Shown: one piece after another, positions 19,819 through 30,135 of the stretch
Position numbering within the stretch: position 1 is the stretch's first letter
Layout of the letters: each line of letters begins with the position of its first letter
NCBI GenBank assembly: GCA_016788565.1
Contig: JAEUSP010000052.1
Coordinates: 1-64,000, forward strand
DNA: 64,000 nt
From: Chlorobiota bacterium
Lineage (GTDB): Bacteria; Bacteroidota; Ignavibacteria; OLB7
Reading direction: 5' to 3'
The notes under the pieces: model-generated
Seen by the model: the letters and a program-made list of their open reading frames with translations, nothing else
What the model was told of the DNA's origin: nothing
Database searches by the model: none
Made by a program: the position numbers and the translations under genes

Positions 19819-20121
19819 AAAAAATAGGCTCAACGAACGTTAGCCCCAAGCAACCCTCTCTTTCTTTCCTCTGTGCTCTCTGTGTCTCTGTGGTTCTTTC
19901 CCTTCTTCGCCACTGAAGAAAAAAAAAACACAGAGGCACAGAGGACACAGAGAGAGAAAAAAAGAGAGAGGAGACACCTCAACAACAAACAGCAAACCGG
20001 ACCGAAGCGGCTGGCATCGCAGCAAGTTTCTTGCAGCCGCCAGCCGCTTCTTGATTTTTTTCTACTTCGGCGAAGCTCAGCATGAGCGGAGGGCCAGGTT
20101 CGGTGGCCAACACTCTTGATC
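19819..20121. repeat. Convergent gap with long family D inverted repeat and family B fragment
   Basis: No gene seen. CTCTGTGCTCTCTGTGTCTC at about 19870 and its near reverse complement at about 19930-19970 form a long imperfect hairpin with a poly-A centre (19919-19929); it may end transcription in both directions. A partial family B copy follows at 20068-20105. Confidence 0.7.
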
Positions 20122-25791: not shown

Positions 25792-25956
25792 ATGCAAAAC
25801 ACTCGGTTTGATTCCGGCGCTGCGGTCGGATCGAGCAATGAACAACAGGAGGAGAAGTTTGTGCCGAAAGGGGCCATCACCTTCTTTCTGCTGCTTCTTG
25901 TGACCTACGCGCTGATGTGGTTCAGCATCTACTTCGACATGCTTTCACGGAGGTAA
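25792..25956 (+). CDS. ba3-type cytochrome oxidase small subunit IIa
   Basis: 54 residues. A soluble N-terminal half ends in KFVPKGAITFFLLLLVTYALMWFSIYF, a single membrane helix that matches subunit IIa of ba3 oxidases (in Thermus a 34-residue peptide). ATG 25792 is the natural start; the open frame extends upstream but lacks similarity. Its stop is 2 bases before the start of subunit II. It probably packs beside subunits I and II and completes the membrane part missing from B-family subunit II, which has only one helix. Confidence 0.82.
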   Translation: MQNTRFDSGAAVGSSNEQQEEKFVPKGAITFFLLLLVTYALMWFSIYFDMLSRR

Positions 25957-25958
25957 CC

Positions 25959-26537
25959 ATGGACAAGTACGAACAACGTGCCGTGCTTGGCGGCAGCTTC
26001 CTGATGCTTGTTTTCTTTGTTGCCGTGGTGATTGCTACCACCGGGTTTGGGGTAACTGTCCCGACCTGTATCGTTGATGTAAAGCCGTTCAAGCATGGGC
26101 AACTGCTGAAGTTAGCGGATAAGCATTACGAGCTTCACGCCGTTGCCAAGATGTGGTCCTTCGACCCACCGGAAGTGACGATTCCCCCCGGAAGCCGTTT
26201 GGATATTTTCCTGACCTCGCCCGATGTTGCTCACGGCTTCAACATCGAAAAAACGAATATCAACCTGATGGCCATCCCAGGCCAAGTGACCTACGCCAGC
26301 GTAACGTTCGACCAGAACGAGTGGGGGAATTTTCGGCTGTTTTGCCATGAGTATTGCGGCATGAACCACCACGCAATGCAAGGGTGGATTAAAGTGTGGC
26401 CAGCCGCCGCGCTTGGTGCAACCAATCAACTCGCGCCGGTTGCGGCACAGCAACCCACGCCCGCACCTGCCCCAGCATCCGCCGAAAAACCCGCCGACAC
26501 CACAACCCAACAACCGAACGGAGGTGCGCAGCAATGA
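25959..26537 (+). CDS. ba3-type cytochrome c oxidase subunit II (CuA)
   Basis: 192 residues. One N-terminal membrane helix (about 12-32) is followed by the periplasmic CuA cupredoxin domain. The CuA ligands are the His of DVAHGFNIE, and C, E, C, H and M in CHEYCGMNHHAM. A Pro/Ala-rich tail of about 40 residues follows. It takes electrons from cytochrome c and passes them to subunit I. GGAGG lies 6 bases before ATG 25959. The stop overlaps the subunit I start (ATGA). Confidence 0.92.
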   Translation: MDKYEQRAVLGGSFLMLVFFVAVVIATTGFGVTVPTCIVDVKPFKHGQLLKLADKHYELHAVAKMWSFDPPEVTIPPGSRLDIFLTSPDVAHGFNIEKTNINLMAIPGQVTYASVTFDQNEWGNFRLFCHEYCGMNHHAMQGWIKVWPAAALGATNQLAPVAAQQPTPAPAPASAEKPADTTTQQPNGGAQQ

Positions 26538-28261
26538 GTCTTCGCCAAACAGTAATGACCCTTGACCGTGGGCTGAAACGGCTAACGCTGATCCAGCTTG
26601 GCGTGCCGATGTTCCTGCTGATTATCGGCATCGGCGGCGGCTTGCTTCAGACGCTGATGCGTGCCGGAATTATCAAATCTCCATCGGCACTGGGGCTGGA
26701 ATACTACCAGGGGCTGACGCTTCATGGGATTATCAACGCTATCGTCTTCACAACATTTTTTGCCGTGGCGTTCGGCAACGCAGTGGTGAGTTACTCGCTT
26801 CGCACGGCCATCAACCTGAAAGTTGCTTGGCTGGCAAATTGGCTGATGCTGGTCGGGACGGTGATGGTTGCCGTGATGGTATTTGCCGGGGAAGGCTCGG
26901 TGCTGTACACCTTCTATCCGCCGCTAAAAGCTCACCCGATTTTTTACGCTGGGCTTGCGTTGTTTGTGGTGGGAAGCTGGGTGGCGTTCTGGAACTGGAT
27001 TCCGCTGTACCTGCAATGGCGGCGCGAACACCCGGGCGAAAAAACCCCGCTGGCAGTGGTTGGCATTTTCACCACGTTCATCGTCTGGCAGATTTGCACC
27101 ATTCCGGTGGCGTACGAGGTGTTGGTGCTGCTGCTTCCGTGGTCGCTTGGTTGGACCGACACGATCAACATTGAATTTGCGCGCACGCTCTTCTGGTTTT
27201 TTGGCCACCCATTGGTCTATTTCTGGCTGCTTCCGGCCTACGTGATGTTCTACACGATGCTGCCAAAATTGGCCGGCGGGAAGCTGTTCAGCGACCGCGC
27301 CGGGCGGCTGGCGTTGATGATCTTTATCATCCTCTCCATTCCCGTTGGTGCCCACCACCAATTTGCCGAGCCGGGGATTGGCGCGCAGTGGAAATTGCTC
27401 CATTCCTTCCTGACGCTTGGCGTTACCATTCCCAGCTTTATCACGGCGTTTACCATGGCGGCTTCGTTGGAGTACGCCGGGCGGCAACGTGGCGCGAAAG
27501 GCTTGCTGAATTGGTTCGGGAAGCTCCCCTACTTCCAAGCCGATAACTACATGTTCGCCTATCTGTTCGTTGGGCTGGTGATCTTCTTTTTTGGCGGGAT
27601 CACCGGTATCATCAACGCCTCGTACAACCTGAACAACGTGGTTCACAACACCGCATGGATGCCGGGGCATTTCCACATGACGGTGGCTGGCCCGGTGTTC
27701 CTTGCGTTCATTGGAATGAGCCTGTACATGGTGGAAAAGATGACCGGGAAGAAAGTAAAAGGGAAGTTGGCCGTTGCCGTGCCGTACATCTGGATGGTGG
27801 GGATCGCAATCTTCAGCACCGGGCTGATGCGCGGCGGATTGCATGGCGAACCACGCCGCACCAACATGGGCCTAACCTATCTGAACCCAGAGAGCAGCCT
27901 GTACCAACCGGAGTGGAAGCTGTGGGTGATGATGACCGCGATTGGCGGAACCATCATGTTCCTGGCAATGGTGATCTACTTTGCCATTTTCTTCAAAACA
28001 CTCTTCAGCAAGAAGACCGAAGAGGAGGTGTTGGAGTTCCCGATAAGCGAAGCCTATCACGACGAGAAGCCGGGAATCTTTGCAAACTTCAAACCCTGGG
28101 TGATTGCTGCAATTATCCTGATTGTTATCAGCTACACCCCGGTGCTGATTGATGTGATGCGAAGCACCGCCTACACCGCCCCGCCGTACGACCCACACGT
28201 TCCGGTTCCGGCGCGCCAGTTCCAGCTGCCACCAAACGTGGTGATTGATAACACAAAATGA
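26534..28261 (+). CDS. ba3-type cytochrome c oxidase subunit I
   Basis: 575 residues with about 13 membrane helices. Heme and CuB ligands are visible: LTLHGIINA (low-spin heme His), FGHPLVYFWLLPAY (CuB His and the cross-linked Tyr), PVGAHHQFAEPG (two CuB His) and WMPGHFHMTVAG (heme His pair). The family-B (ba3) type follows from the absence of the D-channel NxxxxxxxxxxD motif of A-type oxidases and from the overall similarity to Thermus ba3. It reduces oxygen to water and pumps protons. The start overlaps the stop of subunit II; its stop overlaps the ATG of a short duplicated reading frame. Confidence 0.93.
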   Translation: MSLRQTVMTLDRGLKRLTLIQLGVPMFLLIIGIGGGLLQTLMRAGIIKSPSALGLEYYQGLTLHGIINAIVFTTFFAVAFGNAVVSYSLRTAINLKVAWLANWLMLVGTVMVAVMVFAGEGSVLYTFYPPLKAHPIFYAGLALFVVGSWVAFWNWIPLYLQWRREHPGEKTPLAVVGIFTTFIVWQICTIPVAYEVLVLLLPWSLGWTDTINIEFARTLFWFFGHPLVYFWLLPAYVMFYTMLPKLAGGKLFSDRAGRLALMIFIILSIPVGAHHQFAEPGIGAQWKLLHSFLTLGVTIPSFITAFTMAASLEYAGRQRGAKGLLNWFGKLPYFQADNYMFAYLFVGLVIFFFGGITGIINASYNLNNVVHNTAWMPGHFHMTVAGPVFLAFIGMSLYMVEKMTGKKVKGKLAVAVPYIWMVGIAIFSTGLMRGGLHGEPRRTNMGLTYLNPESSLYQPEWKLWVMMTAIGGTIMFLAMVIYFAIFFKTLFSKKTEEEVLEFPISEAYHDEKPGIFANFKPWVIAAIILIVISYTPVLIDVMRSTAYTAPPYDPHVPVPARQFQLPPNVVIDNTK

Positions 28262-28383
28262 GCAAGCAACCAACGCCCGTTGCACCGATGAATAATGGCC
28301 AAAGAAGGGGGAGCAGGAATGTGTGGGAATCCACACTGGCAGCGCTCCTGCTTCCCCTGATGGCCACACTGGTTTGGGGATGA
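28258..28383 (+). pseudogene. 41-codon duplicate of the SCO N-terminus
   Basis: The reading frame starts with ATG overlapping the oxidase subunit I stop (ATGA) and ends in TGA at 28381-28383, where another ATG (28380) overlaps. Its protein MSKQPTPVAPMNNG... ends with a membrane-anchor segment (LAALLLPLMATLVWG) and is a close copy of residues 1-41 of the SCO protein that begins at 28398. The two copies are 140 bases apart and about 85% identical in DNA. It could be a tandem-duplication relic or a tiny membrane peptide. Confidence 0.75.
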
Positions 28384-28397
28384 TGGATACCGCAAGC

Positions 28398-29042
28398 ATG
28401 AGCAAGCAACCAACGTTTGTTGCGCCGATAAATAATGGCTTATTAGGGGCAAGCAGGAATGTGTGGGAATCCACACTGGCAGCGTTCCTGCTTCCCCTGA
28501 TGGCCATTCTATTTTTTGGAGGATGCAGCAACTCCGTCGGGGAGACTTCGCGGGTATATAAACTGACCGATGAACGTGGCCGCACCGTCACCTTCCCCAG
28601 CGATTACCGGGGGCGGAAATTGGTGGTGAGCTACATCTACACCCACTGCCCCGATGTCTGTATCGTGACAACAACAGGGCTGGAGAAGGCCCGGAAACAA
28701 CTTGCCAAAAGCGATGATGTGACGTTCGTCTCCATCACCTTGGACCCACGCCGCGACGACACCACCGCACTGCGCCAGTACGCCGAACTTCGCGGGATTG
28801 ACACCAAGAATTGGCACTTCCTCACCGGCCCCGAATCCACCGTTGATTCACTGTTGGATGAGATGAGCCTGGTGCGGCGGCGGTCATTTATCGAACAATC
28901 CCAAACCGGGGGCGAACTCTACTTTATTGACCACGACGACCCCGTGGTGTTGTGGGATCGCAAAGGAGAAATCCGCGCACGTTTCAAAGGAACCGAACTG
29001 AATCCTGATGACGTTTCCCAAGCAATCAATGAACTACCGTAA
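28398..29042 (+). CDS. SCO1/SenC-family copper chaperone
   Basis: About 214 residues. An N-terminal anchor with a lipobox-like LFFGGC is followed by a thioredoxin-fold domain with the copper-binding CxxxC in YTHCPDVC and later the family patterns FVSITLDPRRDD and the residues LYFIDHDD. SCO proteins deliver or reduce copper at the CuA site of subunit II. ATG 28398 is chosen by comparison with the duplicated copy, which starts at the equivalent codon; an upstream ATG at 28380 is coupled to the duplicate's stop and would add six residues. It overlaps the next gene by 14 bases. Confidence 0.88.
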   Translation: MSKQPTFVAPINNGLLGASRNVWESTLAAFLLPLMAILFFGGCSNSVGETSRVYKLTDERGRTVTFPSDYRGRKLVVSYIYTHCPDVCIVTTTGLEKARKQLAKSDDVTFVSITLDPRRDDTTALRQYAELRGIDTKNWHFLTGPESTVDSLLDEMSLVRRRSFIEQSQTGGELYFIDHDDPVVLWDRKGEIRARFKGTELNPDDVSQAINELP

Positions 29043-30082: not shown

Positions 30083-30094
30083 TCCAAAAACACT

Positions 30095-30135
30095 GAAGCC
30101 GGAGGCCTGATCGCTCAAGCCCCCGGCTTCATTTT
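30095..30135 (+). terminator. Terminator at the end of the oxidase operon
   Basis: GAAGCCGG (30095-30102) pairs with CCGGCTTC (30123-30130), with ATTTTC after it. Confidence 0.6.

What the first reader, a model, noticed from the sequence alone, without database searches (positions are those of the whole stretch)
28258..28500. Tandem duplication of the SCO N-terminus inside the oxidase operon
Seen: a 41-codon frame from ATG 28258 to TGA 28381 repeats the first 41 codons of the SCO gene (from 28398) with about 85% DNA identity, and both ends overlap neighbouring start/stop codons (ATGA). So the ribosome could pass from subunit I through the short frame to SCO. It may be neutral, or make a small membrane peptide that controls SCO levels.
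Basis: seen in the sequence. Interest (0 to 1): 0.55.

Follow-up and report, generated by a model that had tools for sequence, protein, structure and literature searches.

The report
Duplicated RNA hairpin before copper chaperone
In this bacterium the start of a copper-chaperone gene has been copied in tandem right behind an oxidase subunit gene, and what the copy mainly carries is a very strong RNA hairpin, of a kind that also sits at the same gene border in related bacteria and may set how much chaperone is made.

Summary
Window 28258-28385 repeats 28398-28525 at 108 of 128 bases. The short frame (41 codons, TGA 28381-28383) overlaps the coxA stop (ATGA 28258-28261). Its own stop overlaps two in-frame upstream ATGs of SCO (28380, 28383). 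The only other held species of the genus (G001) has a single copy, and its SCO starts at the coxA ATGA, so the duplication is most simply derived in the window species.

The peptide is not the best-supported point. The copies differ by 10 replacement and 2 silent codon changes. What all three sequences keep is a large imperfect hairpin (about -43 to -46 kcal/mol, z -4.6 to -7.0). In this class, SCO starts lying directly behind this coxA carry unusually stable hairpins: 10 of 12 beat synonymous-codon shuffles at z <= -2, against 3 of 41 other SCO starts. The sequences differ between genera, and one genus (g3) lacks the hairpin.

Best reading: an intra-operon hairpin that lowers SCO output relative to oxidase, doubled here and combined with a reinitiation leader ORF. 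Function is inferred. The comparison covers only five genera, and a neutral duplication remains the main rival.

The parts
26534..28261 (+). coxA, haem-copper oxidase subunit I (575 aa); its stop overlaps the short frame
   Evidence: Pfam PF00115 E 1.4e-85
28258..28383 (+). copy 1: 41-codon leader frame (MSKQPTPVAPMNNGQRRGSRNVWESTLAALLLPLMATLVWG)
   Evidence: no Pfam match
28258..28385 (+). repeat copy 1 (128 nt, 84% identical to copy 2)
28398..28525 (+). repeat copy 2 = SCO N-terminus: long n-region, hydrophobic stretch, lipobox-like FFGGC (lipobox reading recalled, not a tool result)
28296..28366 (+). hairpin 1: TGGCCA / 13-pair stem / GTGTGG-GAAT-CCACAC inner stem
   Evidence: -43.0 kcal/mol, z -4.6
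28433..28508 (+). hairpin 2, same position in copy 2, with a longer outer stem
   Evidence: -45.6 kcal/mol, z -7.0; rank 3 of 12784 GC-adjusted 90-nt windows
28512..28517 (+). run of six T just 3' of hairpin 2 (terminator-like; absent after hairpin 1)
   Evidence: sequence
28380..28385 (+). two ATG codons in frame with SCO that overlap the leader stop TGA 28381-28383
28398..29042 (+). SCO/SenC copper chaperone (214 aa from ATG 28398)
   Evidence: Pfam PF02630 E 5e-23

Best explanation
A 140-nt tandem duplication copied the coxA tail and the SCO start. Its main cargo is a hairpin that already sat inside the first ~110 nt of SCO, directly behind the coxA stop. I propose that this hairpin is an RNA element that lowers SCO output relative to the oxidase subunits, by protecting or trimming the coxBA mRNA at its 3' side and/or by partial termination or slowing of expression past it. 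The window species now has two such hairpins in series, plus a 41-codon leader frame that ribosomes must pass by termination-reinitiation (coxA ATGA leader ATGATG SCO), which should cut SCO further. Shown: the duplication, the single-copy state in G001, the hairpins, and their recurrence at coxA-SCO borders. Inferred: that RNA (not DNA) is the acting form, that it affects expression, and the direction of the effect.
For: G001 has one copy with SCO at the coxA ATGA. The hairpin is kept in both copies and in G001: 97.3% of cells paired, against 39-51% with slid partners. A 55-nt core has 1 of the 20 differences between the copies (P 0.0016 by random placement). Same-amino-acid degenerate codons between copy 2 and G001 differ at 4 of 28 in the N-terminus against 46 of 138 in the rest of SCO. 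Synonymous shuffles as stable as native: 1/1000 (copy 2), 2/1000 (G001). Across the class, SCO starts behind this coxA: dinucleotide-shuffle z <= -3 in 6 of 9, against 11 of 122 other SCO starts (these 122 also hold loci from other phyla); synonymous-shuffle z <= -2 in 10 of 12 (median -2.93) against 3 of 41 (median -0.14), Mann-Whitney P 8e-6. Genus g22: 55 of 56 inner stem cells canonical in four species, one pair going U-G / G-C / C-G. G391 lacks that 5' arm and forms a different hairpin using an insertion of its own. G197's hairpin looks like a textbook intrinsic terminator, GC stem then CTTTTTT.
Against: No expression data. The 12 loci come from only five genera in four families, so the P values overstate independence. 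g3 (same family) lacks the hairpin (z -0.1), and G205 is weak (synonymous z -0.44). Copy 1 alone is only marginal against synonymous shuffles (63/1000). Covariation within g1 is not beyond shuffles (180/500). Sense-strand hairpins are not more strand-biased than control windows (P 0.26), so RNA action is not shown. A U-tract follows only G197's hairpin and copy 2, so plain termination is not general. Among 26 close same-strand junctions in three regions, 7 had z <= -3 (one of them the G001 hairpin itself), so structured junctions are not rare.
Confidence: 0.5

Rival explanations
1. Neutral slippage product: the palindrome provoked a tandem duplication during replication, the upstream copy is harmless because SCO kept its own start, and nothing is regulated.
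For: The congener lacks it; the leader frame shows no protein-level constraint; stops arise at once at the junction. Palindrome-promoted slippage is recalled general knowledge.
Against: The copies are 84% identical, close to their 80-81% identity with G001, so the doubled state is probably old (unless the copies were born diverged by import from a relative); exact tandem repeats of this size are normally lost quickly (recalled; a literature search for rates gave nothing usable). Divergence avoids the hairpin core.
Confidence: 0.3
2. One reading: the 41-aa product is a small membrane peptide acting on SCO or the oxidase.
For: It keeps a basic n-region and a hydrophobic C-terminus, and the frame is open.
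Against: 10 of 12 changed codons are replacements; absent from G001; no family match. The hydrophobic stretch is only about 15 residues, at the very C-terminus.
Confidence: 0.06
3. Attenuator-like switch born by duplication: arms A1-B1-A2-B2 can pair 1:2 and 3:4 or 2:3, with translation of the leader frame deciding and hairpin 2 plus U6 acting as terminator.
For: B1 (28346-28357) and A2 (28447-28458) are 92% complementary; without A1 and before B2 is made the region folds at -52.5 kcal/mol through that pairing; U6 at 28512-28517.
Against: Mutual complementarity follows automatically from duplicating a hairpin; no regulatory codon run in the leader; 3:4 lies inside translated SCO.
Confidence: 0.1
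4. Composition artefact: Leu-rich signal-peptide codons pair by accident with Ser/Arg/Gly codons nearby.
For: All are signal-peptide-like regions; g22 arms lie over the hydrophobic stretch and the linker.
Against: Synonymous shuffles remove it, and other SCO starts do not show it (3 of 41).
Confidence: 0.12
5. DNA-level element: mobile palindromic repeat or operator.
For: GTGTGGgaatCCACAC is a near-palindrome present in both copies and G001; strand bias does not favour RNA.
Against: Model R1 finds the element only at this locus in G000 and G001, and no strong match in the other 389 of 391 class genomes; the core palindrome elsewhere is near the count of its reversed control.
Confidence: 0.06

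Closest known systems
Rhodobacter puf operon intercistronic hairpin (segmental mRNA stability)
   Same: [quoted passage not shown] Klug 1987 seen only as a citation there).
   Different: Here the hairpin lies inside the next reading frame and is duplicated; no decay data.
mgtQ short ORF between mgtC and mgtB (Salmonella mgtCBRU)
   Same: Short ORF between two operon genes with alternative stem-loops 1:2, 3:4, 2:3 (PMC8092293, abstract and one results section seen).
   Different: mgtQ is 8 codons and frees a sequestered ribosome site; ours is a 41-codon duplicate of the next gene's start, and no ribosome site is visibly sequestered.
ATGA/TGATG termination-reinitiation gene pairs
   Same: Same stop-start overlaps (PMC6728339, abstract and passages seen).
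   Different: Here two overlaps in series with an inserted duplicate frame.
Internal-operon terminators lowering downstream genes
   Same: Differential expression within operons of complexes (PMC10450193, abstract seen; an archaeon).
   Different: Only G197 and copy 2 look terminator-like here.

Membership tests
Termination-reinitiation coupled gene pair | Stop and start codons overlap (ATGA or TGATG) | tested here: met
   ATGA at 28258-28261; TGA 28381-28383 overlapped by ATG 28380 and ATG 28383
Termination-reinitiation coupled gene pair | Translation of the downstream gene depends on the upstream one | not testable with these tools
   needs reporters
Intercistronic stabilising hairpin (puf-like) | Stable stem-loop at the border of two operon segments | tested here: met
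   recurrence at coxA-SCO borders
Intercistronic stabilising hairpin (puf-like) | Unequal decay or abundance of the two mRNA segments | not testable with these tools
   no RNA data
Intrinsic terminator | GC-rich stem followed directly by a U run | tested here: inconclusive
   copy 2 has U6 after a 3-nt spacer; copy 1 and G001 lack it; G197 has it
Transcription attenuator with leader peptide | Leader ORF with regulatory codons and mutually exclusive hairpins | tested here: inconclusive
   exclusive pairings exist; no run of one regulatory codon in the leader
Interspersed palindromic element (REP/MITE-like) | Many copies in the genome | tested here: not met
   only the tandem pair in G000 and one place in G001
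Rfam RNA family | Match at gathering score | tested here: not met
   one chance-level match, 21 bits against a gathering score of 191

The most novel reading that the evidence does not exclude
An attenuator-like switch caught in the making: tandem duplication of an existing border hairpin supplied, in one step, a leader reading frame, two stem-loops and the competing 2:3 pairing, and copy 2 then gained a U-tract, so that translation of the leader after coxA could decide whether SCO mRNA is finished.
Probability: 0.1. Interest if true: 0.75.

Novelty: new variant of a known kind. Interest (0 to 1): 0.48.

Why it matters
How one operon makes much subunit and little assembly factor is a general question. 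If the hairpins at the oxidase-SCO border do this, their sequence changes freely while a structure at the same place stays, and one species has doubled it. That would give a compact natural experiment on dosage control and on how leader ORFs and attenuators originate.

Tried and rejected
Mobile palindrome or operator: rejected as an interspersed family; one search used a pattern with one N too many and is void. RNA against DNA by strand asymmetry: no difference from controls; a first, biased comparison had suggested one. Covariation within g1: too few sequences. Frameshift from the leader into SCO: considered from the sequence only, no slippery heptamer seen. Rfam: nothing. The first junction scan left minus-strand loci unflipped and is superseded; one search stopped on an error. 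MAFFT put one g22 species (G371) out of register, so its pairs were counted by arms in a script. In one search the window row was scored from a GTG at 28323, not from ATG 28398; one search has the right starts. Literature: three searches on oxidase/SCO operons with coupling or hairpin terms showed no description of this feature in their listings; searches were general.

Full report
Observation. The repeat is real: 28258-28385 and 28398-28525 match at 108 of 128 positions, 140 nt apart. The short frame is ATG 28258 to TGA 28381-28383. coxA (PF00115), SCO (PF02630), PCuAC (PF04314) and a cytochrome c lie in this order. The coxA stop overlaps the leader ATG. The leader stop overlaps ATG 28380 and ATG 28383, both in frame with SCO. 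The sequence before copy 2 resembles the coxA tail, so the unit was probably copied from there to the SCO lipobox region.

Age and direction. The family holds five species in the collection. G001, the only congener, has one copy, with SCO starting at the coxA ATGA. G003 has a 12-nt gap and an unrelated, shorter SCO N-terminus. Identities are 84% copy 1 to copy 2, 81% copy 1 to G001 and 80% copy 2 to G001. Informative sites: 15 group the copies, 13 are private to copy 2, 7 to copy 1. The duplication is therefore derived (or lost in G001) and not recent, unless one copy was imported.

What is constrained. Between copies, 12 of 41 codons differ, 10 by replacement; NG86 dN 0.16, dS 0.21. SCO beyond the N-terminus has dN 0.10, dS 0.71 against G001. 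The 20 differences avoid a 55-nt core (1 inside; P 0.0016 by random placement, a post hoc segment). The core and its flanks form a long hairpin in copy 1, copy 2 and G001 (-43.0, -45.6, -43.4 kcal/mol; z -4.6, -7.0, -5.6; no shuffle of 200 as stable in any). Corrected for GC, copy 2 ranks 3 and copy 1 rank 30 of 12784 90-nt windows on both strands. Of the other top-ranked ones that I looked at, several lie between genes and look like terminators. Against synonymous recoding, copy 2 is extreme (1/1000) and G001 too (2/1000), but copy 1 only marginally (63/1000). The pair counts on three sequences are not beyond shuffles.

Wider comparison. A covariance model of the hairpin finds only these three places at high score in 391 class genomes; the next best is E 0.02. 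So the sequence is genus-specific. At the level of structure the picture widens: among 131 usable SCO loci of 132 (L154 dropped for masked bases), the nine that lie directly behind a relative of this coxA have mean z -4.1 near the SCO start, 6 of 9 at z <= -3, against 11 of 122 other SCO starts (class loci and the 80 named loci together); within SCO bodies 3 of 18 and 24 of 244. With synonymous shuffles, 12 coxA-SCO loci have median z -2.93 (10 at <= -2) against -0.14 (3 of 41) for other SCO starts of the class. The 12 are G000, G001, G003, G197, G181, G205, G028, G142, G171, G371, G380 and G391, that is genera g1, g3, g107, g101 and g22; six are g22. The two clear failures are G003 (-0.13) and G205 (-0.44). 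Some 'other' starts may be miscalled.

Turnover. In g22, four species share a register with 55 of 56 inner cells canonical and one pair showing U-G, G-C and C-G. G142 appears to use a shifted register (my reading). G391 lacks that 5' arm, and an insertion of its own pairs with the 3' side. G197's hairpin is GGCGACCGGGG / CCCCGGTCGCC followed by CTTTTTT, inside SCO. This is what selection for 'a hairpin here' rather than for a sequence would look like, but it rests on few lineages.

Mechanism. I favour dosage control: oxidase subunits are needed in bulk, SCO catalytically (established roles, recalled). A stem-loop just behind coxA can guard the coxBA segment or thin out expression beyond it, as in the puf operon (PMC6238624, passages). 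In the window species a second hairpin and a leader ORF add a further step. Termination-reinitiation at ATGA pairs is documented, and Bacteroidetes hardly use Shine-Dalgarno motifs there (PMC6728339, passages); whether this class behaves so is not known to me. The four arms also allow a 2:3 pairing, which dominates when arm 1 is removed and arm 4 not yet made. mgtQ shows such logic between two genes of an operon (PMC8092293). That reading is kept as the bold case.

Results against. Strand asymmetry does not favour RNA over DNA (P 0.26). Close gene junctions in three regions (the window, L127, L129) are often structured: 7 of 26 at z <= -3, of which one is the G001 hairpin and two (58654, 41942) look like terminators with miscalled starts. 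No expression data exist here. Neutral persistence remains possible.

Verdict. Observation confirmed. The peptide idea is weak. The better finding is a hairpin at the oxidase-SCO border, recurrent in four of five genera examined, and duplicated in this species.

Noticed in passing
25792-25956 (+): 54-aa frame with one hydrophobic stretch at the head of the oxidase operon, no Pfam match; perhaps a small oxidase subunit.
   Followed up: no
30094-30131: 17-pair stem with a T-rich tail behind the cytochrome c gene, a likely shared terminator of two convergent genes.
   Followed up: no
L181 (G197), SCO start: Terminator-like stem and U-tract lie inside the SCO reading frame just behind the coxA stop.
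   Followed up: partly
L175 (G391), SCO start: Extra codons, seen in this species alone of six in its genus, create a new hairpin arm.
   Followed up: partly
19861-19950 (-): Long imperfect palindrome of CTCTGTG-like repeats, GC-adjusted strongest fold of the window.
   Followed up: no
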